Origin: Prosapia bicincta
Lineage: Eukaryota > Arthropoda > Insecta > Hemiptera > Cercopidae
DNA length: 64,000 nt
Reading direction: 5' to 3'
NCBI GenBank assembly: GCA_036971475.1
Contig: JBAIZL010000002.1
Span: forward strand, 45,389,229-45,453,228
Made by a program: the position numbers and the translations under genes. The notes beneath the pieces were generated by a model, which was given only the letters and a program-made list of their open reading frames with translations, had not been told where the DNA came from and did no database searches. This document shows, one piece after another, positions 1 to 62,137 of the stretch (position 1 is the first letter of the stretch; each line of letters begins with the position of its first letter).

Positions 1-947
1 TTTATTGTAATAAGGTATTTGTTAGTTGGGTCTGGGATTTGTTCGTATTTATTTTCTTTTATGTAGTTAGTCATTGAATCGATATATTTGGTATTTTCTA
101 TTATTACTGGAGTATTTGTTTTATCTGATTTTAATATTAAGTAATCGTTGTTTTCTATTTTTTCTCTGAGTTTTATAATTTCTTTTTTATTAATATATTG
201 TTCTGTTATTTTTGTTTTTTCCGTTTTTATTAGGTTAATTTTATTATTAATGTTATTTCTTATGTGTTCAGTATTTTGGTGGGTAATTTTGTGGATGTTA
301 GATTCTGTGTCAACTATTAGGTTTTTTATTATTTGTTTTTTGTTGAAGTTAGGTAGGTTATATTTGAAGGAATTTGTTATTATTATTTTTTCTTTTTCAG
401 TAAATTCTGTTTTAGTTAAGTTTATGAATTTATTATTGTTAGAAGTGTGGGTTGGTTCTAGGCTATTTTTTAGGTTATGTTGTTGTTTTGATGTGTGGAT
501 TGGTGCTAGGCTATTTTTTAGGTTAAGTTGTTTTGATAAATTTTCGATTTTTTTGTTTTGTCTGTTAATAGTGTTTGTTTTATGTTTTATTATAATTTGT
601 TGTATTTTTTCGTGAATAATAGGTGTGAGAGTGTCAAAAGTTTTCATTAATTCCAAATTGGTTGTGTATAATTGTAAATTGATTTGGCTTTTTTTATGGT
701 AGGCAGCTTTAATGTTTTGTTTAATAATGTGTGATTCTGCTATTTTTGTTGCTTTATTGATAATAGTGTTATGTTTATTTTTTATGTGTAATTTTGCGTA
801 TTTTGGTGTTATATTAAGAGTTAGGCATTTTTTATTAAATTGTATTTTGTTGATGCAATTCTGGAGTTTGATTTTGAGGTTAATATATTTACGGTACAGT
901 TGTTTACCTTGGTAGGTATTAAATTCTTGATATTTAATATTATCCAT
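1..947 (-). CDS. PLE RT/GIY-YIG protein, N-terminal part of a copy cut by the window edge
   Basis: N-terminal 315 codons of the family 1 protein, with the ATG at 945-947 on the minus strand. The RT motifs and GIY-YIG domain lie outside the window. It differs from its neighbour by an Ile replacing Leu in the REKLENN stretch. The same change occurs in the frameshifted plus-strand copy at 34820, so the variant is shared between arms or arose twice. No stop or frameshift is visible in the part present. Confidence 0.9.
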   Translation of the reverse strand, partial: MDNIKYQEFNTYQGKQLYRKYINLKIKLQNCINKIQFNKKCLTLNITPKYAKLHIKNKHNTIINKATKIAESHIIKQNIKAAYHKKSQINLQLYTTNLELMKTFDTLTPIIHEKIQQIIIKHKTNTINRQNKKIENLSKQLNLKNSLAPIHTSKQQHNLKNSLEPTHTSNNNKFINLTKTEFTEKEKIIITNSFKYNLPNFNKKQIIKNLIVDTESNIHKITHQNTEHIRNNINNKINLIKTEKTKITEQYINKKEIIKLREKIENNDYLILKSDKTNTPVIIENTKYIDSMTNYIKENKYEQIPDPTNKYLITI

Positions 948-1074
948 TGTTTTTCCGTTGCACTGACTTTATGAAGTTAATATATTACTATTTTTGAGTA
1001 ATTTTATCCACCATTAAGTACAATAATTTTACCTTGAGTGATGAGGCACCTTTCGGTCTTTGACCATTGTCGAA

Positions 1075-3648
1075 TCACTGATTGTTCTCTGCTGTGGATG
1101 CTACGTCCGTGAAGCCGGTGTTTGTTGAAGTTACGCGCACTATTTCTTGATCTGTGTGTATGAGGTTTCTGTATAGTATGTCTTCTGTATATGTTGTTTG
1201 TAAATTCATTAAGTTGTTGTGTATGTTTTTATAAATGTGGTATTTTTCTAGTGAGTTTAGTTCTATTGGGTTGTTATTTATTTCCAGTATGGTTAGGTTA
1301 TTTTCGTAATTTGTAATTTCGTGTTTATGGGAAATTAGGTGTGCTGCAACATTTGATACTTTAGAATTTTTATTTTTGAATGCTCTATAATGTTCTTCAA
1401 ATCTTATTTTAAATGTTCTGGATGTTTTTCCTATGTAAAAAGCGTTACAGTTGTTGCATGTGATTTTGTAGATTCCTGATAGGTTATGTTTTTCTGAATT
1501 TGTTATGTGGTTTTTGTTACTAAGATATTTTATTATTTTGTTGTTTGGTTTGTAAGTTGGAATGTAGTATTCTTTGTTGTATATATTTGTTATTTTTTCT
1601 ATTTTGTTATTGGTATATTTATATTTTAGGTAGATTTTTTTATTTTTATTGTTTTCGTGTTCCGGTTGTAGTGTTGTGTTGATGTTAGGTTTTTTTGTGA
1701 ATTTATTGTATATATTTTTTATAATGTGTTTGTTGTATCCATTTTCTATTGCTATTTTTGTAATGTTATCTAATTCTTCATTTAATTTTTGTTTGTTATC
1801 CTGTGTGTATTTTATTGCTTTATTTATCATGTTACTGTAAGTGTTAATTTTGTGTGTCCAGGGGTGGTTAGATTTGTAGTGTATTGTGGTGTTGTTGGAA
1901 GTAGGTTTCCTGTATACTGTAGTTTCTATTTTATTATCATTTATATTTAAAGTAATGTCGAGGAAGTTGATTGTTCTGTTTGTTTCTGTTTCAACGGTGA
2001 ATTGTATGTTTTCGTTGTATGTATTTAGTTTGTTTAATATTATGACGTGTTCGTTGTGAATGGTAGGTTGGTATATTACAAGTATATCGTCTACATATCT
2101 TGTCCATAGTGAGATATTGTGTGTGTTTATTATAGGTTTAATTATTATTTGTTCAAAGTGTTGTAAATATATTTCTGACATGACAGATGAGATGGGTGAA
2201 CCCATGGGGAGTCCTGTTGTTTGTTTATAATATTTATTGTTAAATTGGAAGTAATTTTGGTTACATATGTGTTTGGTTAGCGTAATGATACTATCTATTA
2301 TGTTTCTTTTTTCGTTATTGTGTATCAGTTTGTTTTTTATTATTTCTATGGTTTCTTCTATTGGGATACTAGGGTACATGTTAGTTATGTCATAACTTAT
2401 TATTTTTGTGTTGCTGTTTGTTTTTATCGTTTTTATTTTATTAATTAATTCGTATCCATTTTTTATATTGTATGTGTTGTTGATGTGTATTTTAGATCTT
2501 AGGATTTTGTCTAGAATTTTTGCGATTATGTAAGATGGTGCTGTTGTGAAATTTATTAGTGGTCTAAATGGTGTGTTTGGTTTATGGATTTTAGGTATCC
2601 CTGATAATACGGGCGCGCATGGTTTAAATGGGTATAATCTTGTGTGGTATTTTAATTTATTGTTATAGTTTAGGGTGTTACGGTGAGTGACTATTAAGTT
2701 TTTTATTGTAATAAGGTATTTGTTAGTTGGGTCTGGGATTTGTTCGTATTTATTTTCTTTTATGTAGTTAGTCATTGAATCGATATATTTGGTATTTTCT
2801 ATTATTACTGGAGTATTTGTTTTATCTGATTTTAATATTAAGTAATCGTTGTTTTCTAGTTTTTCTCTGAGTTTTATAATTTCTTTTTTATTAATATATT
2901 GTTCTGTTATTTTTGTTTTTTCCGTTTTTATTAGGTTAATTTTATTATTAATGTTATTTCTTATGTGTTCAGTATTTTGGTGGGTAATTTTGTGGATGTT
3001 AGATTCTGTGTCAACTATTAGGTTTTTTATTATTTGTTTTTTGTTGAAGTTAGGTAGGTTATATTTGAAGGAATTTGTTATTATTATTTTTTCTTTTTCA
3101 GTAAATTCTGTTTTAGTTAAGTTTATGAATTTATTATTGTTAGAAGTGTGGGTTGGTTCTAGGCTATTTTTTAGGTTATGTTGTTGTTTTGATGTGTGGA
3201 TTGGTGCTAGGCTATTTTTTAGGTTAAGTTGTTTTGATAAATTTTCGATTTTTTTGTTTTGTCTGTTAATAGTGTTTGTTTTATGTTTTATTATAATTTG
3301 TTGTATTTTTTCGTGAATAATAGGTGTGAGAGTGTCAAAAGTTTTCATTAATTCCAAATTGGTTGTGTATAATTGTAAATTGATTTGGCTTTTTTTATGG
3401 TAGGCAGCTTTAATGTTTTGTTTAATAATGTGTGATTCTGCTATTTTTGTTGCTTTATTGATAATAGTGTTATGTTTATTTTTTATGTGTAATTTTGCGT
3501 ATTTTGGTGTTATATTAAGAGTTAGGCATTTTTTATTAAATTGTATTTTGTTGATGCAATTCTGGAGTTTGATTTTGAGGTTAATATATTTACGGTACAG
3601 TTGTTTACCTTGGTAGGTATTAAATTCTTGATATTTAATATTATCCAT
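1075..3648 (-). CDS. PLE reverse transcriptase-GIY-YIG endonuclease, full-length copy L1
   Basis: 857 residues, single exon, with the ATG in context aacaATGG. Expected role: RNA-dependent DNA synthesis primed at a nick made by the element's own endonuclease. Visible landmarks: a basic Asn/Lys/Ile-rich N-terminus; a 16-residue-period duplication (N142-S153 and N158-S169); GIPKIHKP at 350-357; RT motif A SYDITNMYPSIP at 418-429 with D420; motif B TTGLPMGSPISS at 477-488; motif C YVDD at 518-521 (D520, D521); FLDI near 562-565; then the C-terminal nuclease with GIY 725-727, YIG 738-740, R744/R749, H753 and a candidate catalytic Glu at E801. Cysteines C731 and C734 lie between GIY and YIG. This RT-then-GIY-YIG order is diagnostic of endonuclease-bearing PLEs. 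The subfamily was not assigned. Variant state: NYIKEN, HNEHV, PNINTT. Confidence 0.95.
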   Translation of the reverse strand: MDNIKYQEFNTYQGKQLYRKYINLKIKLQNCINKIQFNKKCLTLNITPKYAKLHIKNKHNTIINKATKIAESHIIKQNIKAAYHKKSQINLQLYTTNLELMKTFDTLTPIIHEKIQQIIIKHKTNTINRQNKKIENLSKQLNLKNSLAPIHTSKQQHNLKNSLEPTHTSNNNKFINLTKTEFTEKEKIIITNSFKYNLPNFNKKQIIKNLIVDTESNIHKITHQNTEHIRNNINNKINLIKTEKTKITEQYINKKEIIKLREKLENNDYLILKSDKTNTPVIIENTKYIDSMTNYIKENKYEQIPDPTNKYLITIKNLIVTHRNTLNYNNKLKYHTRLYPFKPCAPVLSGIPKIHKPNTPFRPLINFTTAPSYIIAKILDKILRSKIHINNTYNIKNGYELINKIKTIKTNSNTKIISYDITNMYPSIPIEETIEIIKNKLIHNNEKRNIIDSIITLTKHICNQNYFQFNNKYYKQTTGLPMGSPISSVMSEIYLQHFEQIIIKPIINTHNISLWTRYVDDILVIYQPTIHNEHVIILNKLNTYNENIQFTVETETNRTINFLDITLNINDNKIETTVYRKPTSNNTTIHYKSNHPWTHKINTYSNMINKAIKYTQDNKQKLNEELDNITKIAIENGYNKHIIKNIYNKFTKKPNINTTLQPEHENNKNKKIYLKYKYTNNKIEKITNIYNKEYYIPTYKPNNKIIKYLSNKNHITNSEKHNLSGIYKITCNNCNAFYIGKTSRTFKIRFEEHYRAFKNKNSKVSNVAAHLISHKHEITNYENNLTILEINNNPIELNSLEKYHIYKNIHNNLMNLQTTYTEDILYRNLIHTDQEIVRVTSTNTGFTDVASTAENNQ

Positions 3649-3775
3649 TGTTTTTCCGTTGCACTGACTTTATGAAGTTAATATATTACTATTTTTGAGT
3701 AATTTTATCCACCATTAAGTACAATAATTTTACCTTGAGTGATGAGGCACCTTTCGGTCTTTGACCATTGTCGAA

Positions 3776-6349
3776 TCACTGATTGTTCTCTGCTGTGGAT
3801 GCTACGTCCGTGAAGCCGGTGTTTGTTGAAGTTACGCGCACTATTTCTTGATCTGTGTGTATGAGGTTTCTGTATAGTATGTCTTCTGTATATGTTGTTT
3901 GTAAATTCATTAAGTTGTTGTGTATGTTTTTATAAATGTGGTATTTTTCTAGTGAGTTTAGTTCTATTGGGTTGTTATTTATTTCCAGTATGGTTAGGTT
4001 ATTTTCGTAATTTGTAATTTCGTGTTTATGGGAAATTAGGTGTGCTGCAACATTTGATACTTTAGAATTTTTATTTTTGAATGCTCTATAATGTTCTTCA
4101 AATCTTATTTTAAATGTTCTGGATGTTTTTCCTATGTAAAAAGCGTTACAGTTGTTGCATGTGATTTTGTAGATTCCTGATAGGTTATGTTTTTCTGAAT
4201 TTGTTATGTGGTTTTTGTTACTAAGATATTTTATTATTTTGTTGTTTGGTTTGTAAGTTGGAATGTAGTATTCTTTGTTGTATATATTTGTTATTTTTTC
4301 TATTTTGTTATTGGTATATTTATATTTTAGGTAGATTTTTTTATTTTTATTGTTTTCGTGTTCCGGTTGTAGTGTTGTGTTGATGTTAGGTTTTTTTGTG
4401 AATTTATTGTATATATTTTTTATAATGTGTTTGTTGTATCCATTTTCTATTGCTATTTTTGTAATGTTATCTAATTCTTCATTTAATTTTTGTTTGTTAT
4501 CCTGTGTGTATTTTATTGCTTTATTTATCATGTTACTGTAAGTGTTAATTTTGTGTGTCCAGGGGTGGTTAGATTTGTAGTGTATTGTGGTGTTGTTGGA
4601 AGTAGGTTTCCTGTATACTGTAGTTTCTATTTTATTATCATTTATATTTAAAGTAATGTCGAGGAAGTTGATTGTTCTGTTTGTTTCTGTTTCAACGGTG
4701 AATTGTATGTTTTCGTTGTATGTATTTAGTTTGTTTAATATTATGACGTGTTCGTTGTGAATGGTAGGTTGGTATATTACAAGTATATCGTCTACATATC
4801 TTGTCCATAGTGAGATATTGTGTGTGTTTATTATAGGTTTAATTATTATTTGTTCAAAGTGTTGTAAATATATTTCTGACATGACAGATGAGATGGGTGA
4901 ACCCATGGGGAGTCCTGTTGTTTGTTTATAATATTTATTGTTAAATTGGAAGTAATTTTGGTTACATATGTGTTTGGTTAGCGTAATGATACTATCTATT
5001 ATGTTTCTTTTTTCGTTATTGTGTATCAGTTTGTTTTTTATTATTTCTATGGTTTCTTCTATTGGGATACTAGGGTACATGTTAGTTATGTCATAACTTA
5101 TTATTTTTGTGTTGCTGTTTGTTTTTATCGTTTTTATTTTATTAATTAATTCGTATCCATTTTTTATATTGTATGTGTTGTTGATGTGTATTTTAGATCT
5201 TAGGATTTTGTCTAGAATTTTTGCGATTATGTAAGATGGTGCTGTTGTGAAATTTATTAGTGGTCTAAATGGTGTGTTTGGTTTATGGATTTTAGGTATC
5301 CCTGATAATACGGGCGCGCATGGTTTAAATGGGTATAATCTTGTGTGGTATTTTAATTTATTGTTATAGTTTAGGGTGTTACGGTGAGTGACTATTAAGT
5401 TTTTTATTGTAATAAGGTATTTGTTAGTTGGGTCTGGGATTTGTTCGTATTTATTTTCTTTTATGTAGTTAGTCATTGAATCGATATATTTGGTATTTTC
5501 TATTATTACTGGAGTATTTGTTTTATCTGATTTTAATATTAAGTAATCGTTGTTTTCTAGTTTTTCTCTGAGTTTTATAATTTCTTTTTTATTAATATAT
5601 TGTTCTGTTATTTTTGTTTTTTCCGTTTTTATTAGGTTAATTTTATTATTAATGTTATTTCTTATGTGTTCAGTATTTTGGTGGGTAATTTTGTGGATGT
5701 TAGATTCTGTGTCAACTATTAGGTTTTTTATTATTTGTTTTTTGTTGAAGTTAGGTAGGTTATATTTGAAGGAATTTGTTATTATTATTTTTTCTTTTTC
5801 AGTAAATTCTGTTTTAGTTAAGTTTATGAATTTATTATTGTTAGAAGTGTGGGTTGGTTCTAGGCTATTTTTTAGGTTATGTTGTTGTTTTGATGTGTGG
5901 ATTGGTGCTAGGCTATTTTTTAGGTTAAGTTGTTTTGATAAATTTTCGATTTTTTTGTTTTGTCTGTTAATAGTGTTTGTTTTATGTTTTATTATAATTT
6001 GTTGTATTTTTTCGTGAATAATAGGTGTGAGAGTGTCAAAAGTTTTCATTAATTCCAAATTGGTTGTGTATAATTGTAAATTGATTTGGCTTTTTTTATG
6101 GTAGGCAGCTTTAATGTTTTGTTTAATAATGTGTGATTCTGCTATTTTTGTTGCTTTATTGATAATAGTGTTATGTTTATTTTTTATGTGTAATTTTGCG
6201 TATTTTGGTGTTATATTAAGAGTTAGGCATTTTTTATTAAATTGTATTTTGTTGATGCAATTCTGGAGTTTGATTTTGAGGTTAATATATTTACGGTACA
6301 GTTGTTTACCTTGGTAGGTATTAAATTCTTGATATTTAATATTATCCAT
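3776..6349 (-). CDS. PLE reverse transcriptase-GIY-YIG endonuclease, copy L2
   Basis: Full 857-codon ORF with the same predicted protein as copy L1 (NYIKEN, HNEHV, PNINTT). All RT and GIY-YIG landmark residues are kept. It lies 127 bp from each neighbouring CDS, and its stop codon overlaps the conserved three-way-junction fold. Identical adjacent copies suggest recent local duplication or conversion. Confidence 0.95.
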   Translation of the reverse strand: MDNIKYQEFNTYQGKQLYRKYINLKIKLQNCINKIQFNKKCLTLNITPKYAKLHIKNKHNTIINKATKIAESHIIKQNIKAAYHKKSQINLQLYTTNLELMKTFDTLTPIIHEKIQQIIIKHKTNTINRQNKKIENLSKQLNLKNSLAPIHTSKQQHNLKNSLEPTHTSNNNKFINLTKTEFTEKEKIIITNSFKYNLPNFNKKQIIKNLIVDTESNIHKITHQNTEHIRNNINNKINLIKTEKTKITEQYINKKEIIKLREKLENNDYLILKSDKTNTPVIIENTKYIDSMTNYIKENKYEQIPDPTNKYLITIKNLIVTHRNTLNYNNKLKYHTRLYPFKPCAPVLSGIPKIHKPNTPFRPLINFTTAPSYIIAKILDKILRSKIHINNTYNIKNGYELINKIKTIKTNSNTKIISYDITNMYPSIPIEETIEIIKNKLIHNNEKRNIIDSIITLTKHICNQNYFQFNNKYYKQTTGLPMGSPISSVMSEIYLQHFEQIIIKPIINTHNISLWTRYVDDILVIYQPTIHNEHVIILNKLNTYNENIQFTVETETNRTINFLDITLNINDNKIETTVYRKPTSNNTTIHYKSNHPWTHKINTYSNMINKAIKYTQDNKQKLNEELDNITKIAIENGYNKHIIKNIYNKFTKKPNINTTLQPEHENNKNKKIYLKYKYTNNKIEKITNIYNKEYYIPTYKPNNKIIKYLSNKNHITNSEKHNLSGIYKITCNNCNAFYIGKTSRTFKIRFEEHYRAFKNKNSKVSNVAAHLISHKHEITNYENNLTILEINNNPIELNSLEKYHIYKNIHNNLMNLQTTYTEDILYRNLIHTDQEIVRVTSTNTGFTDVASTAENNQ

Positions 6350-6476
6350 TGTTTTTCCGTTGCACTGACTTTATGAAGTTAATATATTACTATTTTTGAG
6401 TAATTTTATCCACCATTAAGTACAATAATTTTACCTTGAGTGATGAGGCACCTTTCGGTCTTTGACCATTGTCGAA

Positions 6477-9050
6477 TCACTGATTGTTCTCTGCTGTGGA
6501 TGCTACGTCCGTGAAGCCGGTGTTTGTTGAAGTTACGCGCACTATTTCTTGATCTGTGTGTATGAGGTTTCTGTATAGTATGTCTTCTGTATATGTTGTT
6601 TGTAAATTCATTAAGTTGTTGTGTATGTTTTTATAAATGTGGTATTTTTCTAGTGAGTTTAGTTCTATTGGGTTGTTATTTATTTCCAGTATGGTTAGGT
6701 TATTTTCGTAATTTGTAATTTCGTGTTTATGGGAAATTAGGTGTGCTGCAACATTTGATACTTTAGAATTTTTATTTTTGAATGCTCTATAATGTTCTTC
6801 AAATCTTATTTTAAATGTTCTGGATGTTTTTCCTATGTAAAAAGCGTTACAGTTGTTGCATGTGATTTTGTAGATTCCTGATAGGTTATGTTTTTCTGAA
6901 TTTGTTATGTGGTTTTTGTTACTAAGATATTTTATTATTTTGTTGTTTGGTTTGTAAGTTGGAATGTAGTATTCTTTGTTGTATATATTTGTTATTTTTT
7001 CTATTTTGTTATTGGTATATTTATATTTTAGGTAGATTTTTTTATTTTTATTGTTTTCGTGTTCCGGTTGTAGTGTTGTGTTGATGTTAGGTTTTTTTGT
7101 GAATTTATTGTATATATTTTTTATAATGTGTTTGTTGTATCCATTTTCTATTGCTATTTTTGTAATGTTATCTAATTCTTCATTTAATTTTTGTTTGTTA
7201 TCCTGTGTGTATTTTATTGCTTTATTTATCATGTTACTGTAAGTGTTAATTTTGTGTGTCCAGGGGTGGTTAGATTTGTAGTGTATTGTGGTGTTGTTGG
7301 AAGTAGGTTTCCTGTATACTGTAGTTTCTATTTTATTATCATTTATATTTAAAGTAATGTCGAGGAAGTTGATTGTTCTGTTTGTTTCTGTTTCAACGGT
7401 GAATTGTATGTTTTCGTTGTATGTATTTAGTTTGTTTAATATTATGACGTGTTCGTTGTGAATGGTAGGTTGGTATATTACAAGTATATCGTCTACATAT
7501 CTTGTCCATAGTGAGATATTGTGTGTGTTTATTATAGGTTTAATTATTATTTGTTCAAAGTGTTGTAAATATATTTCTGACATGACAGATGAGATGGGTG
7601 AACCCATGGGGAGTCCTGTTGTTTGTTTATAATATTTATTGTTAAATTGGAAGTAATTTTGGTTACATATGTGTTTGGTTAGCGTAATGATACTATCTAT
7701 TATGTTTCTTTTTTCGTTATTGTGTATCAGTTTGTTTTTTATTATTTCTATGGTTTCTTCTATTGGGATACTAGGGTACATGTTAGTTATGTCATAACTT
7801 ATTATTTTTGTGTTGCTGTTTGTTTTTATCGTTTTTATTTTATTAATTAATTCGTATCCATTTTTTATATTGTATGTGTTGTTGATGTGTATTTTAGATC
7901 TTAGGATTTTGTCTAGAATTTTTGCGATTATGTAAGATGGTGCTGTTGTGAAATTTATTAGTGGTCTAAATGGTGTGTTTGGTTTATGGATTTTAGGTAT
8001 CCCTGATAATACGGGCGCGCATGGTTTAAATGGGTATAATCTTGTGTGGTATTTTAATTTATTGTTATAGTTTAGGGTGTTACGGTGAGTGACTATTAAG
8101 TTTTTTATTGTAATAAGGTATTTGTTAGTTGGGTCTGGGATTTGTTCGTATTTATTTTCTTTTATGTAGTTAGTCATTGAATCGATATATTTGGTATTTT
8201 CTATTATTACTGGAGTATTTGTTTTATCTGATTTTAATATTAAGTAATCGTTGTTTTCTAGTTTTTCTCTGAGTTTTATAATTTCTTTTTTATTAATATA
8301 TTGTTCTGTTATTTTTGTTTTTTCCGTTTTTATTAGGTTAATTTTATTATTAATGTTATTTCTTATGTGTTCAGTATTTTGGTGGGTAATTTTGTGGATG
8401 TTAGATTCTGTGTCAACTATTAGGTTTTTTATTATTTGTTTTTTGTTGAAGTTAGGTAGGTTATATTTGAAGGAATTTGTTATTATTATTTTTTCTTTTT
8501 CAGTAAATTCTGTTTTAGTTAAGTTTATGAATTTATTATTGTTAGAAGTGTGGGTTGGTTCTAGGCTATTTTTTAGGTTATGTTGTTGTTTTGATGTGTG
8601 GATTGGTGCTAGGCTATTTTTTAGGTTAAGTTGTTTTGATAAATTTTCGATTTTTTTGTTTTGTCTGTTAATAGTGTTTGTTTTATGTTTTATTATAATT
8701 TGTTGTATTTTTTCGTGAATAATAGGTGTGAGAGTGTCAAAAGTTTTCATTAATTCCAAATTGGTTGTGTATAATTGTAAATTGATTTGGCTTTTTTTAT
8801 GGTAGGCAGCTTTAATGTTTTGTTTAATAATGTGTGATTCTGCTATTTTTGTTGCTTTATTGATAATAGTGTTATGTTTATTTTTTATGTGTAATTTTGC
8901 GTATTTTGGTGTTATATTAAGAGTTAGGCATTTTTTATTAAATTGTATTTTGTTGATGCAATTCTGGAGTTTGATTTTGAGGTTAATATATTTACGGTAC
9001 AGTTGTTTACCTTGGTAGGTATTAAATTCTTGATATTTAATATTATCCAT
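6477..9050 (-). CDS. PLE reverse transcriptase-GIY-YIG endonuclease, copy L3
   Basis: Full 857-codon ORF with the same predicted protein as copies L1 and L2, making three successive identical proteins. All catalytic landmarks are intact: D420, D520/D521, GIY-YIG and E801. This block is the most homogenised part of the left arm. Confidence 0.95.
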   Translation of the reverse strand: MDNIKYQEFNTYQGKQLYRKYINLKIKLQNCINKIQFNKKCLTLNITPKYAKLHIKNKHNTIINKATKIAESHIIKQNIKAAYHKKSQINLQLYTTNLELMKTFDTLTPIIHEKIQQIIIKHKTNTINRQNKKIENLSKQLNLKNSLAPIHTSKQQHNLKNSLEPTHTSNNNKFINLTKTEFTEKEKIIITNSFKYNLPNFNKKQIIKNLIVDTESNIHKITHQNTEHIRNNINNKINLIKTEKTKITEQYINKKEIIKLREKLENNDYLILKSDKTNTPVIIENTKYIDSMTNYIKENKYEQIPDPTNKYLITIKNLIVTHRNTLNYNNKLKYHTRLYPFKPCAPVLSGIPKIHKPNTPFRPLINFTTAPSYIIAKILDKILRSKIHINNTYNIKNGYELINKIKTIKTNSNTKIISYDITNMYPSIPIEETIEIIKNKLIHNNEKRNIIDSIITLTKHICNQNYFQFNNKYYKQTTGLPMGSPISSVMSEIYLQHFEQIIIKPIINTHNISLWTRYVDDILVIYQPTIHNEHVIILNKLNTYNENIQFTVETETNRTINFLDITLNINDNKIETTVYRKPTSNNTTIHYKSNHPWTHKINTYSNMINKAIKYTQDNKQKLNEELDNITKIAIENGYNKHIIKNIYNKFTKKPNINTTLQPEHENNKNKKIYLKYKYTNNKIEKITNIYNKEYYIPTYKPNNKIIKYLSNKNHITNSEKHNLSGIYKITCNNCNAFYIGKTSRTFKIRFEEHYRAFKNKNSKVSNVAAHLISHKHEITNYENNLTILEINNNPIELNSLEKYHIYKNIHNNLMNLQTTYTEDILYRNLIHTDQEIVRVTSTNTGFTDVASTAENNQ

Positions 9051-9177
9051 TGTTTTTCCGTTGCACTGACTTTATGAAGTTAATATATTACTATTTTTGA
9101 GTAATTTTATCCACCATTAAGTACAATAATTTTACCTTGAGTGATGAGGCACCTTTCGGTCTTTGACCATTGTCGAA

Positions 9178-11751: not shown

Positions 11752-11878
11752 TGTTTTTCCGTTGCACTGACTTTATGAAGTTAATATATTACTATTTTTG
11801 AGTAATTTTATCCACCATTAAGTACAATAATTTTACCTTGAGTGATGAGGCACCTTTCGGTCTTTGACCATTGTCGAA

Positions 11879-14452: not shown

Positions 14453-14579
14453 TGTTTTTCCGTTGCACTGACTTTATGAAGTTAATATATTACTATTTTT
14501 GAGTAATTTTATCCACCATTAAGTACAATAATTTTACCTTGAGTGATGAGGCACCTTTCGGTCTTTGACCATTGTCGAA

Positions 14580-31991: not shown

Positions 31992-32118
31992 TTCGACAAT
32001 GGTCAAAGACCGAAAGGTGCCTCATCACTCAAGGTAAAATTATTGTACTTAATGGTGGATAAAATTACTCAAAAATAGTAATATATTAACTTCATAAAGT
32101 CAGTGCAACGGAAAAACA

Positions 32119-34692: not shown

Positions 34693-34819
34693 TTCGACAA
34701 TGGTCAAAGACCGAAAGGTGCCTCATCACTCAAGGTAAAATTATTGTACTTAATGGTGGATAAAATTACTCAAAAATAGTAATATATTAACTTCATAAAG
34801 TCAGTGCAACGGAAAAACA

Positions 34820-37394: not shown

Positions 37395-37521
37395 TTCGAC
37401 AATGGTCAAAGACCGAAAGGTGCCTCATCACTCAAGGTAAAATTATTGTACTTAATGGTGGATAAAATTACTCAAAAATAGTAATATATTAACTTCATAA
37501 AGTCAGTGCAACGGAAAAACA

Positions 37522-40095
37522 ATAGATAATATTAAATATCAAGAATTTAATACCTACCAAGGTAAACAACTGTACCGTAAATATATTAACCTCAAAATCA
37601 AACTCCAGAATTGCATCAACAAAATACAATTTAATAAAAAATGCCTAACTCTTAATATAACACCAAAATACGCAAAATTACACATAAAAAATAAACATAA
37701 CACTATTATCAATAAAGCAACAAAAATAGCAGAATCACACATTATTAAACAAAACATTAAAGCTGCCTACCATAAAAAAAGCCAAATCAATTTACAATTA
37801 TACACAACCAATTTGGAATTAATGAAAACTTTTGACACTCTCACACCTATTATTCACGAAAAAATACAACAAATTATAATAAAACATAAAACAAACACTA
37901 TTAACAGACAAAACAAAAAAATCGAAAATTTATCAAAACAACTTAACCTAAAAAATAGCCTAGCACCAATCCACACATCAAAACAACAACATAACCTAAA
38001 AAATAGCCTAGAACCAACCCACACTTCTAACAATAATAAATTCATAAACTTAACTAAAACAGAATTTACTGAAAAAGAAAAAATAATAATAACAAATTCC
38101 TTCAAATATAACCTACCTAACTTCAACAAAAAACAAATAATAAAAAACCTAATAGTTGACACAGAATCTAACATCCACAAAATTACCCATCAAAATACTG
38201 AACACATAAGAAATAACATTAATAATAAAATTAACCTAATAAAAACGGAAAAAACAAAAATAACAGAACAATATATTAATAAAAAAGAAATTATAAAACT
38301 CAGAGAAAAACTAGAAAACAACGATTACTTAATATTAAAATCAGATAAAACAAATACTCCAGTAATAATAGAAAATACCAAATATATCGATTCAATGACT
38401 AACTACATAAAAGAAAATAAATACGAACAAATCCCAGACCCAACTAACAAATACCTTATTACAATAAAAAACTTAATAGTCACTCACCGTAACACCCTAA
38501 ACTATAACAATAAATTAAAATACCACACAAGATTATACCCATTTAAACCATGCGCGCCCGTATTATCAGGGATACCTAAAATCCATAAACCAAACACACC
38601 ATTTAGACCACTAATAAATTTCACAACAGCACCATCTTACATAATCGCAAAAATTCTAGACAAAATCCTAAGATCTAAAATACACATCAACAACACATAC
38701 AATATAAAAAATGGATACGAATTAATTAATAAAATAAAAACGATAAAAACAAACAGCAACACAAAAATAATAAGTTATGACATAACTAACATGTACCCTA
38801 GTATCCCAATAGAAGAAACCATAGAAATAATAAAAAACAAACTGATACACAATAACGAAAAAAGAAACATAATAGATAGTATCATTACGCTAACCAAACA
38901 CATATGTAACCAAAATTACTTCCAATTTAACAATAAATATTATAAACAAACAACAGGACTCCCCATGGGTTCACCCATCTCATCTGTCATGTCAGAAATA
39001 TATTTACAACACTTTGAACAAATAATAATTAAACCTATAATAAACACACACAATATCTCACTATGGACAAGATATGTAGACGATATACTTGTAATATACC
39101 AACCTACCATTCACAACGAACACGTCATAATATTAAACAAACTAAATACATACAACGAAAACATACAATTCACCGTTGAAACAGAAACAAACAGAACAAT
39201 CAACTTCCTCGACATTACTTTAAATATAAATGATAATAAAATAGAAACTACAGTATACAGGAAACCTACTTCCAACAACACCACAATACACTACAAATCT
39301 AACCACCCCTGGACACACAAAATTAACACTTACAGTAACATGATAAATAAAGCAATAAAATACACACAGGATAACAAACAAAAATTAAATGAAGAATTAG
39401 ATAACATTACAAAAATAGCAATAGAAAATGGATACAACAAACACATTATAAAAAATATATACAATAAATTCACAAAAAAACCTAACCTCAACACAACACT
39501 ACAACCGGAACACGAAAACAATAAAAATAAAAAAATCTACCTAAAATATAAATATACCAATAACAAAATAGAAAAAATAACAAATATATACAACAAAGAA
39601 TACTACATTCCAACTTACAAACCAAACAACAAAATAATAAAATATCTTAGTAACAAAAACCACATAACAAATTCAGAAAAACATAACCTATCAGGAATCT
39701 ACAAAATCACATGCAACAACTGTAACGCTTTTTACATAGGAAAAACATCCAGAACATTTAAAATAAGATTTGAAGAACATTATAGAGCATTCAAAAATAA
39801 AAATTCTAAAGTATCAAATGTTGCAGCACACCTAATTTCCCATAAACACGAAATTACAAATTACGAAAATAACCTAACCATACTGGAAATAAATAACAAC
39901 CCAATAGAACTAAACTCACTAGAAAAATACCACATTTATAAAAACATACACAACAACTTAATGAATTTACAAACAACATATACAGAAGACATACTATACA
40001 GAAACCTCATACACACAGATCAAGAAATAGTGCGCGTAACTTCAACAAACACCGGCTTCACGGACGTAGCATCCACAGCAGAGAACAATCAGTGA
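37522..40095 (+). pseudogene. PLE copy R6 with lost start codon (ATG to ATA)
   Basis: Unit-length with an uninterrupted frame, but the initiator is ATA (aacaatagataat at 37518-37530). The next in-frame ATG is codon 101 at 37822, which would give a 757-residue protein that keeps every RT and GIY-YIG motif and loses only the basic N-terminus. It shares the silent acccatcaa marker with R3 and R8, and the lost start with R8. Confidence 0.9.
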
Positions 40096-40222
40096 TTCGA
40101 CAATGGTCAAAGACCGAAAGGTGCCTCATCACTCAAGGTAAAATTATTGTACTTAATGGTGGATAAAATTACTCAAAAATAGTAATATATTAACTTCATA
40201 AAGTCAGTGCAACGGAAAAACA

Positions 40223-42796
40223 ATGGATAATATTAAATATCAAGAATTTAATACCTACCAAGGTAAACAACTGTACCGTAAATATATTAACCTCAAAATC
40301 AAACTCCAGAATTGCATCAACAAAATACAATTTAATAAAAAATGCCTAACTCTTAATATAACACCAAAATACGCAAAATTACACATAAAAAATAAACATA
40401 ACACTATTATCAATAAAGCAACAAAAATAGCAGAATCACACATTATTAAACAAAACATTAAAGCTGCCTACCATAAAAAAAGCCAAATCAATTTACAATT
40501 ATACACAACCAATTTGGAATTAATGAAAACTTTTGACACTCTCACACCTATTATTCACGAAAAAATACAACAAATTATAATAAAACATAAAACAAACACT
40601 ATTAACAGACAAAACAAAAAAATCGAAAATTTATCAAAACAACTTAACCTAAAAAATAGCCTAGCACCAATCCACACATCAAAACAACAACATAACCTAA
40701 AAAATAGCCTAGAACCAACCCACACTTCTAACAATAATAAATTCATAAACTTAACTAAAACAGAATTTACTGAAAAAGAAAAAATAATAATAACAAATTC
40801 CTTCAAATATAACCTACCTAACTTCAACAAAAAACAAATAATAAAAAACCTAATAGTTGACACAGAATCTAACATCCACAAAATTACCCACCAAAATACT
40901 GAACACATAAGAAATAACATTAATAATAAAATTAACCTAATAAAAACGGAAAAAACAAAAATAACAGAACAATATATTAATAAAAAAGAAATTATAAAAC
41001 TCAGAGAAAAACTAGAAAACAACGATTACTTAATATTAAAATCAGATAAAACAAATACTCCAGTAATAATAGAAAATACCAAATATATCGATTCAATGAC
41101 TAACTACACAAAAGAAAATAAATACGAACAAATCCCAGACCCAACTAACAAATACCTTATTACAATAAAAAACTTAATAGTCACTCACCGTAACACCCTA
41201 AACTATAACAATAAATTAAAATACCACACAAGATTATACCCATTTAAACCATGCGCGCCCGTATTATCAGGGATACCTAAAATCCATAAACCAAACACAC
41301 CATTTAGACCACTAATAAATTTCACAACAGCACCATCTTACATAATCGCAAAAATTCTAGACAAAATCCTAAGATCTAAAATACACATCAACAACACATA
41401 CAATATAAAAAATGGATACGAATTAATTAATAAAATAAAAACGATAAAAACAAACAGCAACACAAAAATAATAAGTTATGACATAACTAACATGTACCCT
41501 AGTATCCCAATAGAAGAAACCATAGAAATAATAAAAAACAAACTGATACACAATAACGAAAAAAGAAACATAATAGATAGTATCATTACGCTAACCAAAC
41601 ACATATGTAACCAAAATTACTTCCAATTTAACAGTAAATATTATAAACAAACAACAGGACTCCCCATGGGTTCACCCATCTCATCTGTCATGTCAGAAAT
41701 ATATTTACAACACTTTGAACAAATAATAATTAAACCTATAATAAACACACACAATATCTCACTATGGACAAGATATGTAGACGATATACTTGTAATATAC
41801 CAACCTACCATTCACAACGAACACGTCATAATATTAAACAAACTAAATACATACAACGAAAACATACAATTCACCGTTGAAACAGAAACAAACAGAACAA
41901 TCAACTTCCTCGACATTACTTTAAATATAAATGATAATAAAATAGAAACTACAGTATACAGGAAACCTACTTCCAACAACACCACAATACACTACAAATC
42001 TAACCACCCCTGGACACACAAAATTAACACTTACAGTAACATGATAAATAAAGCAATAAAATACACACAGGATAACAAACAAAAATTAAATGAAGAATTA
42101 GATAACATTACAAAAATAGCAATAGAAAATGGATACAACAAACACATTATAAAAAATATATACAATAAATTCACAAAAAAACCTAACCTCAACACAACAC
42201 TACAACCGGAACACGAAAACAATAAAAATAAAAAAATCTACCTAAAATATAAATATACCAATAACAAAATAGAAAAAATAACAAATATATACAACAAAGA
42301 ATACTACATTCCAACTTACAAACCAAACAACAAAATAATAAAATATCTTAGTAACAAAAACCACATAACAAATTCAGAAAAACATAACCTATCAGGAATC
42401 TACAAAATCACATGCAACAACTGTAACGCTTTTTACATAGGAAAAACATCCAGAACATTTAAAATAAGATTTGAAGAACATTATAGAGCATTCAAAAATA
42501 AAAATTCTAAAGTATCAAATGTTGCAGCACACCTAATTTCCCATAAACACGAAATTACAAATTACGAAAATAACCTAACCATACTGGAAATAAATAACAA
42601 CCCAATAGAACTAAACTCACTAGAAAAATACCACATTTATAAAAACATACACAACAACTTAATGAATTTACAAACAACATATACAGAAGACATACTATAC
42701 AGAAACCTCATACACACAGATCAAGAAATAGTGCGCGTAACTTCAACAAACACCGGCTTCACGGACGTAGCATCCACAGCAGAGAACAATCAGTGA
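40223..42796 (+). CDS. PLE reverse transcriptase-GIY-YIG endonuclease, copy R7
   Basis: Full 857-codon ORF with NYTKEN, FNSKYY, HNEHV and PNLNTT. It is the third member, after R1 and R4, of the Thr/Ser class, but with Glu rather than Lys after motif C. Catalytic motifs are intact. Confidence 0.95.
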   Translation: MDNIKYQEFNTYQGKQLYRKYINLKIKLQNCINKIQFNKKCLTLNITPKYAKLHIKNKHNTIINKATKIAESHIIKQNIKAAYHKKSQINLQLYTTNLELMKTFDTLTPIIHEKIQQIIIKHKTNTINRQNKKIENLSKQLNLKNSLAPIHTSKQQHNLKNSLEPTHTSNNNKFINLTKTEFTEKEKIIITNSFKYNLPNFNKKQIIKNLIVDTESNIHKITHQNTEHIRNNINNKINLIKTEKTKITEQYINKKEIIKLREKLENNDYLILKSDKTNTPVIIENTKYIDSMTNYTKENKYEQIPDPTNKYLITIKNLIVTHRNTLNYNNKLKYHTRLYPFKPCAPVLSGIPKIHKPNTPFRPLINFTTAPSYIIAKILDKILRSKIHINNTYNIKNGYELINKIKTIKTNSNTKIISYDITNMYPSIPIEETIEIIKNKLIHNNEKRNIIDSIITLTKHICNQNYFQFNSKYYKQTTGLPMGSPISSVMSEIYLQHFEQIIIKPIINTHNISLWTRYVDDILVIYQPTIHNEHVIILNKLNTYNENIQFTVETETNRTINFLDITLNINDNKIETTVYRKPTSNNTTIHYKSNHPWTHKINTYSNMINKAIKYTQDNKQKLNEELDNITKIAIENGYNKHIIKNIYNKFTKKPNLNTTLQPEHENNKNKKIYLKYKYTNNKIEKITNIYNKEYYIPTYKPNNKIIKYLSNKNHITNSEKHNLSGIYKITCNNCNAFYIGKTSRTFKIRFEEHYRAFKNKNSKVSNVAAHLISHKHEITNYENNLTILEINNNPIELNSLEKYHIYKNIHNNLMNLQTTYTEDILYRNLIHTDQEIVRVTSTNTGFTDVASTAENNQ

Positions 42797-42923
42797 TTCG
42801 ACAATGGTCAAAGACCGAAAGGTGCCTCATCACTCAAGGTAAAATTATTGTACTTAATGGTGGATAAAATTACTCAAAAATAGTAATATATTAACTTCAT
42901 AAAGTCAGTGCAACGGAAAAACA

Positions 42924-45497
42924 ATAGATAATATTAAATATCAAGAATTTAATACCTACCAAGGTAAACAACTGTACCGTAAATATATTAACCTCAAAAT
43001 CAAACTCCAGAATTGCATCAACAAAATACAATTTAATAAAAAATGCCTAACTCTTAATATAACACCAAAATACGCAAAATTACACATAAAAAATAAACAT
43101 AACACTATTATCAATAAAGCAACAAAAATAGCAGAATCACACATTATTAAACAAAACATTAAAGCTGCCTACCATAAAAAAAGCCAAATCAATTTACAAT
43201 TATACACAACCAATTTGGAATTAATGAAAACTTTTGACACTCTCACACCTATTATTCACGAAAAAATACAACAAATTATAATAAAACATAAAACAAACAC
43301 TATTAACAGACAAAACAAAAAAATCGAAAATTTATCAAAACAACTTAACCTAAAAAATAGCCTAGCACCAATCCACACATCAAAACAACAACATAACCTA
43401 AAAAATAGCCTAGAACCAACCCACACTTCTAACAATAATAAATTCATAAACTTAACTAAAACAGAATTTACTGAAAAAGAAAAAATAATAATAACAAATT
43501 CCTTCAAATATAACCTACCTAACTTCAACAAAAAACAAATAATAAAAAACCTAATAGTTGACACAGAATCTAACATCCACAAAATTACCCATCAAAATAC
43601 TGAACACATAAGAAATAACATTAATAATAAAATTAACCTAATAAAAACGGAAAAAACAAAAATAACAGAACAATATATTAATAAAAAAGAAATTATAAAA
43701 CTCAGAGAAAAACTAGAAAACAACGATTACTTAATATTAAAATCAGATAAAACAAATACTCCAGTAATAATAGAAAATACCAAATATATCGATTCAATGA
43801 CTAACTACATAAAAGAAAATAAATACGAACAAATCCCAGACCCAACTAACAAATACCTTATTACAATAAAAAACTTAATAGTCACTCACCGTAACACCCT
43901 AAACTATAACAATAAATTAAAATACCACACAAGATTATACCCATTTAAACCATGCGCGCCCGTATTATCAGGGATACCTAAAATCCATAAACCAAACACA
44001 CCATTTAGACCACTAATAAATTTCACAACAGCACCATCTTACATAATCGCAAAAATTCTAGACAAAATCCTAAGATCTAAAATACACATCAACAACACAT
44101 ACAATATAAAAAATGGATACGAATTAATTAATAAAATAAAAACGATAAAAACAAACAGCAACACAAAAATAATAAGTTATGACATAACTAACATGTACCC
44201 TAGTATCCCAATAGAAGAAACCATAGAAATAATAAAAAACAAACTGATACACAATAACGAAAAAAGAAACATAATAGATAGTATCATTACGCTAACCAAA
44301 CACATATGTAACCAAAATTACTTCCAATTTAACAATAAATATTATAAACAAACAACAGGACTCCCCATGGGTTCACCCATCTCATCTGTCATGTCAGAAA
44401 TATATTTACAACACTTTGAACAAATAATAATTAAACCTATAATAAACACACACAATATCTCACTATGGACAAGATATGTAGACGATATACTTGTAATATA
44501 CCAACCTACCATTCACAACGAACACGTCATAATATTAAACAAACTAAATACATACAACGAAAACATACAATTCACCGTTGAAACAGAAACAAACAGAACA
44601 ATCAACTTCCTCGACATTACTTTAAATATAAATGATAATAAAATAGAAACTACAGTATACAGGAAACCTACTTCCAACAACACCACAATACACTACAAAT
44701 CTAACCACCCCTGGACACACAAAATTAACACTTACAGTAACATGATAAATAAAGCAATAAAATACACACAGGATAACAAACAAAAATTAAATGAAGAATT
44801 AGATAACATTACAAAAATAGCAATAGAAAATGGATACAACAAACACATTATAAAAAATATATACAATAAATTCACAAAAAAACCTAACCTCAACACAACA
44901 CTACAACCGGAACACGAAAACAATAAAAATAAAAAAATCTACCTAAAATATAAATATACCAATAACAAAATAGAAAAAATAACAAATATATACAACAAAG
45001 AATACTACATTCCAACTTACAAACCAAACAACAAAATAATAAAATATCTTAGTAACAAAAACCACATAACAAATTCAGAAAAACATAACCTATCAGGAAT
45101 CTACAAAATCACATGCAACAACTGTAACGCTTTTTACATAGGAAAAACATCCAGAACATTTAAAATAAGATTTGAAGAACATTATAGAGCATTCAAAAAT
45201 AAAAATTCTAAAGTATCAAATGTTGCAGCACACCTAATTTCCCATAAACACGAAATTACAAATTACGAAAATAACCTAACCATACTGGAAATAAATAACA
45301 ACCCAATAGAACTAAACTCACTAGAAAAATACCACATTTATAAAAACATACACAACAACTTAATGAATTTACAAACAACATATACAGAAGACATACTATA
45401 CAGAAACCTCATACACACAGATCAAGAAATAGTGCGCGTAACTTCAACAAACACCGGCTTCACGGACGTAGCATCCACAGCAGAGAACAATCAGTGA
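42924..45497 (+). pseudogene. PLE copy R8 with lost start codon (ATG to ATA)
   Basis: Same ATA initiator and silent acccatcaa marker as R6, 5402 bp away, and the same predicted protein from codon 98 on. The two are clearly duplicates of one already-inactivated unit. This shows that unit amplification does not require the copied unit to have a normal start codon. Confidence 0.9.
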
Positions 45498-45624
45498 TTC
45501 GACAATGGTCAAAGACCGAAAGGTGCCTCATCACTCAAGGTAAAATTATTGTACTTAATGGTGGATAAAATTACTCAAAAATAGTAATATATTAACTTCA
45601 TAAAGTCAGTGCAACGGAAAAACA

Positions 45625-48198
45625 ATGGATAATATTAAATATCAAGAATTTAATACCTACCAAGGTAAACAACTGTACCGTAAATATATTAACCTCAAAA
45701 TCAAACTCCAGAATTGCATCAACAAAATACAATTTAATAAAAAATGCCTAACTCTTAATATAACACCAAAATACGCAAAATTACACATAAAAAATAAACA
45801 TAACACTATTATCAATAAAGCAACAAAAATAGCAGAATCACACATTATTAAACAAAACATTAAAGCTGCCTACCATAAAAAAAGCCAAATCAATTTACAA
45901 TTATACACAACCAATTTGGAATTAATGAAAACTTTTGACACTCTCACACCTATTATTCACGAAAAAATACAACAAATTATAATAAAACATAAAACAAACA
46001 CTATTAACAGACAAAACAAAAAAATCGAAAATTTATCAAAACAACTTAACCTAAAAAATAGCCTAGCACCAATCCACACATCAAAACAACAACATAACCT
46101 AAAAAATAGCCTAGAACCAACCCACACTTCTAACAATAATAAATTCATAAACTTAACTAAAACAGAATTTACTGAAAAAGAAAAAATAATAATAACAAAT
46201 TCCTTCAAATATAACCTACCTAACTTCAACAAAAAACAAATAATAAAAAACCTAATAGTTGACACAGAATCTAACATCCACAAAATTACCCACCAAAATA
46301 CTGAACACATAAGAAATAACATTAATAATAAAATTAACCTAATAAAAACGGAAAAAACAAAAATAACAGAACAATATATTAATAAAAAAGAAATTATAAA
46401 ACTCAGAGAAAAACTAGAAAACAACGATTACTTAATATTAAAATCAGATAAAACAAATACTCCAGTAATAATAGAAAATACCAAATATATCGATTCAATG
46501 ACTAACTACACAAAAGAAAATAAATACGAACAAATCCCAGACCCAACTAACAAATACCTTATTACAATAAAAAACTTAATAGTCACTCACCGTAACACCC
46601 TAAACTATAACAATAAATTAAAATACCACACAAGATTATACCCATTTAAACCATGCGCGCCCGTATTATCAGGGATACCTAAAATCCATAAGCCAAACAC
46701 ACCATTTAGACCACTAATAAATTTCACAACAGCACCATCTTACATAATCGCAAAAATTCTAGACAAAATCCTAAGATCTAAAATACACATCAACAACACA
46801 TACAATATAAAAAATGGATACGAATTAATTAATAAAATAAAAACGATAAAAACAAACAGCAACACAAAAATAATAAGTTATGACATAACTAACATGTACC
46901 CTAGTATCCCAATAGAAGAAACCATAGAAATAATAAAAAACAAACTGATACACAATAACGAAAAAAGAAACATAATAGATAGTATCATTACGCTAACCAA
47001 ACACATATGTAACCAAAATTACTTCCAATTTAACAATAAATATTATAAACAAACAACAGGACTCCCCATGGGTTCACCCATCTCATCTGTCATGTCAGAA
47101 ATATATTTACAACACTTTGAACAAATAATAATTAAACCTATAATAAACACACACAATATCTCACTATGGACAAGATATGTAGACGATATACTTGTAATAT
47201 ACCAACCTACCATTCACAACGAACACGTCATAATATTAAACAAACTAAATACATACAACGAAAACATACAATTCACCGTTGAAACAGAAACAAACAGAAC
47301 AATCAACTTCCTCGACATTACTTTAAATATAAATGATAATAAAATAGAAACTACAGTATACAGGAAACCTACTTCCAACAACACCACAATACACTACAAA
47401 TCTAACCACCCCTGGACACACAAAATTAACACTTACAGTAACATGATAAATAAAGCAATAAAATACACACAGGATAACAAACAAAAATTAAATGAAGAAT
47501 TAGATAACATTACAAAAATAGCAATAGAAAATGGATACAACAAACACATTATAAAAAATATATACAATAAATTCACAAAAAAACCTAACCTCAACACAAC
47601 ACTACAACCGGAACACGAAAACAATAAAAATAAAAAAATCTACCTAAAATATAAATATACCAATAACAAAATAGAAAAAATAACAAATATATACAACAAA
47701 GAATACTACATTCCAACTTACAAACCAAACAACAAAATAATAAAATATCTTAGTAACAAAAACCACATAACAAATTCAGAAAAACATAACCTATCAGGAA
47801 TCTACAAAATCACATGCAACAACTGTAACGCTTTTTACATAGGAAAAACATCCAGAACATTTAAAATAAGATTTGAAGAACATTATAGAGCATTCAAAAA
47901 TAAAAATTCTAAAGTATCAAATGTTGCAGCACACCTAATTTCCCATAAACACGAAATTACAAATTACGAAAATAACCTAACCATACTGGAAATAAATAAC
48001 AACCCAATAGAACTAAACTCACTAGAAAAATACCACATTTATAAAAACATACACAACAACTTAATGAATTTACAAACAACATATACAGAAGACATACTAT
48101 ACAGAAACCTCATACACACAGATCAAGAAATAGTGCGCGTAACTTCAACAAACACCGGCTTCACGGACGTAGCATCCACAGCAGAGAACAATCAGTGA
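45625..48198 (+). CDS. PLE reverse transcriptase-GIY-YIG endonuclease, terminal copy R9
   Basis: Full 857-codon ORF with NYTKEN, FNNKYY, HNEHV and PNLNTT, and one silent A to G near 46691 (cataagcc). It is the outermost right-arm copy. Its 3' tail is followed by (AT)n rather than another unit, which fixes the element's natural 3' end at about 48300. Confidence 0.95.
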   Translation: MDNIKYQEFNTYQGKQLYRKYINLKIKLQNCINKIQFNKKCLTLNITPKYAKLHIKNKHNTIINKATKIAESHIIKQNIKAAYHKKSQINLQLYTTNLELMKTFDTLTPIIHEKIQQIIIKHKTNTINRQNKKIENLSKQLNLKNSLAPIHTSKQQHNLKNSLEPTHTSNNNKFINLTKTEFTEKEKIIITNSFKYNLPNFNKKQIIKNLIVDTESNIHKITHQNTEHIRNNINNKINLIKTEKTKITEQYINKKEIIKLREKLENNDYLILKSDKTNTPVIIENTKYIDSMTNYTKENKYEQIPDPTNKYLITIKNLIVTHRNTLNYNNKLKYHTRLYPFKPCAPVLSGIPKIHKPNTPFRPLINFTTAPSYIIAKILDKILRSKIHINNTYNIKNGYELINKIKTIKTNSNTKIISYDITNMYPSIPIEETIEIIKNKLIHNNEKRNIIDSIITLTKHICNQNYFQFNNKYYKQTTGLPMGSPISSVMSEIYLQHFEQIIIKPIINTHNISLWTRYVDDILVIYQPTIHNEHVIILNKLNTYNENIQFTVETETNRTINFLDITLNINDNKIETTVYRKPTSNNTTIHYKSNHPWTHKINTYSNMINKAIKYTQDNKQKLNEELDNITKIAIENGYNKHIIKNIYNKFTKKPNLNTTLQPEHENNKNKKIYLKYKYTNNKIEKITNIYNKEYYIPTYKPNNKIIKYLSNKNHITNSEKHNLSGIYKITCNNCNAFYIGKTSRTFKIRFEEHYRAFKNKNSKVSNVAAHLISHKHEITNYENNLTILEINNNPIELNSLEKYHIYKNIHNNLMNLQTTYTEDILYRNLIHTDQEIVRVTSTNTGFTDVASTAENNQ

Positions 48199-48300
48199 TT
48201 CGACAATGGTCAAAGACCGAAAGGTGCCTCATCACTCAAGGTAAAATTATTGTACTTAATGGTGGATAAAATTACTCAAAAATAGTAATATATTAACTTC

Positions 48301-48333
<33 letters not shown>

Positions 48334-62130: not shown

Positions 62131-62131
62131 T

Positions 62132-62137
62132 ATATAC

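What the first reader, a model, noticed from the sequence alone, without database searches (positions are those of the whole stretch)
1..48303. Satellite-like array of full-length, mostly intact Penelope-like retroelements
At least 17 unit-length copies of a 2701-bp PLE lie head-to-tail without spacers, 14 of them with an intact 857-codon RT/GIY-YIG ORF. PLEs usually show one or two tandem partial copies. Here a coding retroelement behaves like a satellite monomer. Intact ORFs across the array suggest very recent amplification or continued homogenisation. Either way, one locus could supply many transcripts of active enzyme.
Basis: partly seen in the sequence, partly recalled or inferred. Interest (0 to 1): 0.9.

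Follow-up and report, generated by a model that had tools for sequence, protein, structure and literature searches.

The report
Two-armed array of intact Penelope retroelements
An insect gene intron appears to hold at least 17 nearly identical, mostly intact full-length copies of a Penelope-type jumping element, arranged as two opposed tandem arrays meeting head to head, more than such elements are usually reported to stack.

Summary
The array is in the sequence: 17 full-length copies of a 2701-bp Penelope-like element (PLE), 14 with an intact 857-codon ORF. It is not one head-to-tail array: two arms meet head to head at 22944/22945, eight minus-strand units left, nine plus-strand units right. 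Both innermost copies are 5'-truncated, at different points. All 18 head-to-tail seams in the window are seamless. The right end stops in an (AT)n tract at a 3' terminus seen twice in the window, 301 bp before a TAF5 exon; that exon pair is closest to a spittlebug's TAF5. Head-to-head joins and AT-rich targets are reported PLE features; arms this long, homogeneous and intact I found in no passage read. Sixteen sites vary among 17 units (mean pairwise difference 0.125%). Shared variants, differing arms (p=0.0097) and four-gamete pairs suggest exchange among units or a mixed template pool; order within arms is weak. Variants show no clear purifying selection: intactness looks like youth. Best reading: one two-ended PLE insertion whose arms grew by unequal exchange. 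Copy number in the assembly is unverified: no reads were available and the genome search did not complete.

The parts
1..947 (-). Left arm: element copy cut by the window edge (unit positions 1-947)
   Evidence: blastn of a unit against the window
948..22555 (-). Left arm: 8 full-length 2701-bp units (unit position 1 at 3648, 6349, 9050, 11751, 14452, 17153, 19854, 22555), each with an intact 857-codon ORF
22556..22945 (-). Left arm inner end: 5'-truncated piece, from unit position 2312 on
22944..22945 (.). Head-to-head junction; the two truncated pieces overlap by 2 bp
22944..24015 (+). Right arm inner end: 5'-truncated piece, from unit position 1630 on
24016..34819 (+). Right arm: 4 units (24016, 26717, 29418, 32119), ORFs intact
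34820..37521 (+). Right arm unit with one extra A in an A run (2702 bp), frameshifted ORF
37522..40222 (+). Right arm unit with start codon ATG->ATA
40223..42923 (+). Right arm unit used as reference; intact ORF 40223-42796 (P0001)
42924..45624 (+). Right arm unit with start codon ATG->ATA, same variant haplotype as unit 37522
45625..48303 (+). Outermost right unit, intact ORF 45625-48198; ends at unit position 2679, taken as the element's 3' terminus
48301..48336 (.). (AT)18 microsatellite at the right end of the array (presumed target)
62178..62265 (+). Isolated 88-bp 3' fragment of the same or a related element (unit 2591-2679, 95.5%), ending at the same unit position, with (AT)n on both sides
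48605..49106 (+). Last two coding exons of TAF5 (48605-48782, 48889-49106; splice sites read by eye). The array lies upstream, presumably in the preceding intron, right arm in TAF5 sense
   Evidence: (human TAF5 residues 670-797 of 800)

Best explanation
This is one PLE insertion locus in a TAF5 intron of a hemipteran close to spittlebugs. Step 1 (inferred): the PLE protein cut an (AT)n tract and primed cDNA from both target ends; the two cDNAs, each 5'-truncated at a different point, were joined head to head, leaving the opposed partial tandems known from PLEs. Step 2 (inferred): each arm grew, to at least 8 and to 9 full units, by unequal exchange between its in-register units, which also shuffled variants. 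The expansion is recent, so most ORFs are still open without selection having to keep them. Shown: unit structure, opposed arms, truncated inner ends, the same 3' end in (AT)n at two places, seamless seams, variant sharing. Not shown: priming from both ends, the left outer end, the expansion itself.
For: Opposed arms and truncation points; 2-bp overlap at the junction. Same 3' end in two places, both in (AT)n. In vitro a PLE prefers to cut AT-rich DNA and extends both strands (PMC11167929, main text); head-to-head is called the most frequently observed inverted arrangement in Adineta PLEs (PMC3846280, passages). Six of 16 variable sites are shared by 2-6 units; arms differ (between minus within, p=0.0097); three four-gamete pairs imply exchange within units. 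Of five shared sites tested, 1967A clusters at the outer left (p=0.007) and 1598A around the junction (p=0.027). Three adjacent left units share one haplotype. Longest exact direct repeat 7295 bp. Coding variants 10 nonsynonymous to 4 synonymous, besides one start loss and one frameshift; sites in the ratio 4.2.
Against: Order within arms is weak: Mantel with arms kept p=0.146, left 0.069, right 0.68. The three-unit periodicity of the right arm is p=0.032 alone and 0.13 over five lags. The two clustering p values are uncorrected; the other three sites gave 0.19-0.30. Variants 888C and 1598A occur in both arms, which exchange inside each arm does not explain. For Adineta the authors prefer self-priming on an antisense template, with palindromes at the inverted junction, over two-ended priming; here I saw a 2-bp overlap and no palindrome, but the point is not tested. 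The left outer end and any target-site duplication lie outside the window.
Confidence: 0.5

Rival explanations
1. Single-event multimer: the PLE RT copied a multi-unit read-through transcript, a circular RNA, or hopped end to end over many RNAs, making both long arms at once; no later expansion is needed.
For: Seamless seams in a fixed register, 18 of 18. One head-to-head junction with truncated inner ends. Variants shared across arms and weak local order fit sampling from a mixed RNA pool. Multi-copy PLE mRNA is proposed in PMC11167929; tandem cDNA from circular RNA is proposed for retrozymes, found as tandem repeats up to 62-mers in a coral (PMC7229834, passages).
Against: Needs cDNA of more than 22 kb per arm. 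Arms differ (p=0.0097), unlike two draws from one pool. No hammerhead core found in the unit and no Rfam match at E<=10 in 37000-49000 or at a seam, so no known route to a circle. End-to-end hops by R2-type RT often leave extra bases at joins (recalled, no call); none here.
Confidence: 0.25
2. Assembly artefact: a real locus with a few PLE units was expanded, or separate PLE loci were mis-joined.
For: Units are 99.9% identical; three adjacent left units and three further pairs share haplotypes. The one indel is an extra A in an A run, a typical sequencing error. The window opens inside the array. No reads were available, and the genome search did not complete.
Against: 12 distinct haplotypes among 17 units. 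Longest exact repeat 7295 bp direct (at lags of 1-16 units, plus or minus one base) and 2700 bp inverted (among the diagonals kept), shorter than ordinary long reads (recalled). Arms are not mirror images (mirror distance 2.375, all cross pairs 2.47) and are truncated 682 bp apart, unlike a simple fold-back. Such arrays are more often collapsed than expanded in assembly (recalled).
Confidence: 0.22
3. Independent insertions: PLEs repeatedly inserted into resident PLE copies at the same site and built the arms one by one.
For: In vitro the Anolis PLE cuts a target made of its own ORF-pLTR junction (PMC11167929).
Against: Seams are exact and units inside the arms full length; independent insertions should leave target duplications, (AT)n remnants or 5' truncations inside the arms.
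Confidence: 0.03

Closest known systems
EN-containing Penelope-like element insertions (Penelope of Drosophila virilis, Adineta vaga Pen families, Poseidon of Anolis)
   Same: RT plus GIY-YIG in one ORF, tandem or partial-tandem copies, inverted partner mostly head to head, AT-rich target, defined 3' tail (PMC11167929 main text; PMC3846280 passages)
   Different: At least 8 and 9 full units per arm instead of a full plus a partial copy; 14 intact ORFs; no hammerhead found; the 3' end lies upstream of the ORF start, not inside it. Caution: the Adineta paper already notes a tendency to long tandem/inverted structures that could not be assembled whole
Bari1 h39 cluster of D. melanogaster
   Same: Many head-to-tail copies of a coding transposable element without spacers; a 2022 review knew no comparable described example (PMC8834629, passages)
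   Different: Bari1 is a Tc1-mariner DNA transposon in heterochromatin, roughly 80 copies head to tail; this is a retroelement beside TAF5 exons with two opposed arms
Metazoan retrozymes
   Same: Tandem multimers (dimers to 62-mers); PLEs are named a strong candidate for mobilising them (PMC7229834, passages)
   Different: Units of 150-450 bp with hammerhead ribozymes; here 2.7 kb, coding, no hammerhead found
Terminons of bdelloid telomeres
   Different: Endonuclease-deficient, telomere-associated, most copies 5'-truncated by short telomeric repeats

Membership tests
EN-containing Penelope-like element | Telomerase-like reverse transcriptase with catalytic aspartates | tested here: met
   D520 and D521 invariant among 12 aligned sequences; 22 of 27 homologs carry RVT_1; first six PDB fold matches are telomerase RT, best E 1.5e-09, TM 0.29/0.40. 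P0001 itself has no Pfam hit
EN-containing Penelope-like element | C-terminal GIY-YIG endonuclease | tested here: met
   Invariant Y727, Y738, G740, R749, E801 in the alignment with P0015, which has a GIY-YIG hit. By alignment only: P0001 has no Pfam hit and no GIY-YIG nuclease is among the 50 fold matches listed
EN-containing Penelope-like element | Tandem or partial-tandem copies with an inverted partner | tested here: met
EN-containing Penelope-like element | AT-rich target and defined 3' tail | tested here: met
   Array end and one solo fragment both end at unit 2679 in (AT)n; two cases only
EN-containing Penelope-like element | Minimal hammerhead ribozyme in the pseudo-LTR (common; whether universal not established here) | tested here: not met
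   No CTGANGA...GAAA core on either strand of the unit; Rfam 0 matches at E<=10 in two stretches
EN-containing Penelope-like element | Target-site duplication (optional) | not testable with these tools
   Left outer end lies outside the window
Satellite DNA | Long tandem array of near-identical monomers | tested here: met
   17 full units, 99.8-100% identity to the reference unit
Satellite DNA | Copy number evolving by unequal exchange | tested here: inconclusive
   Four-gamete pairs and arm differences favour exchange; order statistics are weak
Metazoan retrozyme | Short unit with type I hammerhead | tested here: not met
   2701-bp coding unit, no hammerhead found

The most novel reading that the evidence does not exclude
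Both arms were laid down by two-ended target-primed copying of multi-unit or re-used PLE templates in one event, giving a giant bidirectional concatemer of intact elements; lying in a TAF5 intron, it is now transcribed as a hairpin RNA with arms over 20 kb long that makes small RNAs against the whole family, so that a large stock of intact copies is also its silencer.
Probability: 0.12. Interest if true: 0.88.

Novelty: new variant of a known kind. Interest (0 to 1): 0.6.

Why it matters
How PLEs integrate, and why their copies come in tandem and head to head, is unsettled. A young locus with two long opposed arms, a clean junction and a clear 3' end gives a natural test: its ends, unit orders and copy-number variation would separate insertion plus unequal exchange from long-multimer reverse transcription. 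It would also be a retroelement counterpart of the Bari1 cluster, a possible path from an intact coding element to satellite-like DNA inside a gene.

Tried and rejected
Copying from a hammerhead-made RNA circle: looked for the ribozyme by core pattern and Rfam, none found; kept only within a rival. RNA structure at a seam: no unusual stability, z -0.20. Fold-back assembly artefact: arms are not mirror images. Three-unit higher-order repeat in the right arm: suggestive only, p=0.032 alone, 0.13 over five lags. Purifying selection as the cause of intact ORFs: 10 nonsynonymous and 4 synonymous variants against a site ratio of 4.2; no formal test was run.

Relatives in viral contigs: of 87 stretches matched, 33 loci at 23-41% identity over parts of the RT; not followed up. 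Relatives in genome contigs: none of 32 stretches confirmed. Homologs: 27 proteins, but only the 7992 candidates sharing most words were scored; 11 of the 27 were aligned. Clade within PLEs: not resolved. Papers not held, known to me only as references in other papers and from recall: PMC5785218 (Luense 2017), PMC4209133 (Cervera 2014), PMC8557442 (Craig 2021), PMC5932611 (McGurk 2018).

Searches for PLE tandem or satellite arrays: 13 of 13 listed; 2 of 2; 6 of 6; 7 of 7; 13 of 13; 9 listed of 10; 1 of 1; 12 listed of 21. From these I read the main text of PMC11167929 and passages of PMC3846280, PMC7229834, PMC6431247, PMC7761336, PMC3833285, PMC12910113 and PMC12477314; of the rest only the listing. 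From I read passages of PMC12628747, PMC10048060, PMC9659126 and PMC8834629.

Full report
What is there. The window holds a 2701-bp repeat from position 1 to 48303. There are 17 full-length copies: 15 of 2701 bp, one of 2702 bp (one extra A), and the outermost right one of 2679 bp, which stops at what I take as the element's 3' terminus. One further copy is cut by the window's left edge, and two truncated pieces lie inside. Fourteen of the 17 carry an open 857-codon frame. Three do not: unit 34820 is frameshifted, and units 37522 and 42924 have lost their start codon.

ORFs up to 22555 are on the minus strand and those from 24016 on are on the plus strand. The two arms meet head to head at 22944/22945. 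The left arm's inner copy starts at unit position 2312, the right arm's at 1630, with a 2-bp overlap at the join. All 18 head-to-tail seams in the window are identical over 400 bp, apart from one base in each of the two ATG->ATA units.

The protein. Pfam finds nothing in P0001 at E<=10, nor an RT in its closest homolog P0003, but does in P0007 and P0015. A protein search gives 27 relatives, the best 53% identical, 22 with a precomputed RVT_1 domain and 4 with GIY-YIG; named ones come from Onthophagus, Temnothorax, Eurosta and Liolophura. An alignment with 11 of them keeps the YVDD aspartates and GIY-YIG residues. A predicted structure (mean pLDDT 79.8, pTM 0.64) has telomerase RT as its first six PDB matches, with modest TM-scores (0.29 by query and 0.40 by target for the best); no GIY-YIG nuclease is among the 50 matches listed.

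Ends and setting. The array stops at unit position 2679 in an (AT)18 tract. An isolated 88-bp fragment at 62178-62265 ends at the same unit position, also in (AT)n, so this looks like a defined 3' end, on two cases. Two exons follow at 48605-49106 on the plus strand. Their spliced peptide matches human TAF5 residues 670-797 of 800 (E 2.3e-48 for 6f3t_A; among 623 WD40-type hits three repeat-rich chains scored higher by summed repeats). In the protein search (325 hits, 120 listed) it is 88% identical to TAF5 of Clastoptera arizonana, the highest identity listed, 83% to Lycorma and 79% to Nilaparvata; the first row by E-value is an unrelated WD40 repeat protein at 38%. Clastoptera is a cercopoid hemipteran; spittlebug is its common name (recalled). 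The host is thus probably a hemipteran near spittlebugs, and the array probably lies in a TAF5 intron, provided the earlier exons lie to the left, which the window does not show.

Variation. Sixteen alignment columns vary among the 17 units; 16 further columns differ only because the last copy ends at 2679 and were dropped. The mean pairwise difference is 3.38 sites, 0.125%, with 12 distinct haplotypes. Six sites are shared by two to six units. Arms differ more than expected (p=0.0097), yet two variants (888, 1598) occur in both. Three site pairs show all four combinations. Of five shared sites tested for clustering, 1967 gives p=0.007 and 1598 p=0.027; 888, 670 and 1413 give 0.19-0.30; none is corrected. 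A Mantel test over the array gives p=0.010, but 0.146 with arms kept, 0.069 in the left and 0.68 in the right arm. A three-unit periodicity in the right arm is p=0.032, or 0.13 over five lags. All 16 variable sites lie in the ORF: ten nonsynonymous, four synonymous, one start loss, one frameshift; nonsynonymous to synonymous sites are 4.2 to 1. So the frames look open because the copies are young; no formal selection test was run.

Mechanism. Two features are known for PLEs. In Adineta vaga, inverted partners are common and head-to-head is the most frequent form; the authors suggest self-priming on an antisense template, and note that long tandem/inverted structures resisted assembly (PMC3846280, passages). 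The Anolis element in vitro prefers AT-rich cuts, extends both strands and starts inside its RNA; hammerhead mutants did not affect insertion (PMC11167929, main text). A two-ended insertion explains the junction here; self-priming is not excluded. What is not ordinary is the growth of both arms. Unequal exchange is the simplest route, since units are in register and variants show exchange; copying of multi-unit RNA in one event is the main rival. No hammerhead was found, which removes the known route to RNA circles but not others.

Artefact. No reads or genome were available; the genome search failed ten times. Against a gross artefact: 12 haplotypes, longest exact repeat 7295 bp, arms that are not mirror images. 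Copy number could still be wrong.

Comparison. Bari1 of D. melanogaster, roughly 80 head-to-tail copies of a DNA transposon, was called without comparable described example in a 2022 review (PMC8834629, passages). Retrozymes form multimers of short units (PMC7229834, passages). Terminons can form telomeric arrays (PMC6431247, passages). I saw no report of a coding PLE array of this size in the listings and passages, in an open-access library only; four central papers were not held.

Verdict. A real and unusual variant of a known kind of locus, conditional on the assembly.

Noticed in passing
window 61417-63976: A second, different Penelope-like element by eye: a 312-codon ORF (62611-63549) whose only hint in Pfam is a sub-threshold GIY-YIG match (E 0.054), amid direct and inverted repeats of about 170-550 bp like pseudo-LTRs; the 88-bp fragment of the array's element sits in an (AT)n tract within it.
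   Followed up: partly
window 24016-48303 (sense strand): Strong strand bias of the element: sense strand 51% A and 7% G, third codon positions 49% A and 3% G; the right flank has GC skew of only about -0.19 to 0.05.
   Followed up: no
window about 51357-51560: Short inverted repeat with arms of roughly 90 bp, MITE-like by eye.
   Followed up: no
window 56405-56631: Two copies of a 113-bp tandem repeat, 99% matches.
   Followed up: no
window about 55170-57530: Minus-strand exon-like stretches of an unidentified gene downstream of TAF5, seen by eye.
   Followed up: no
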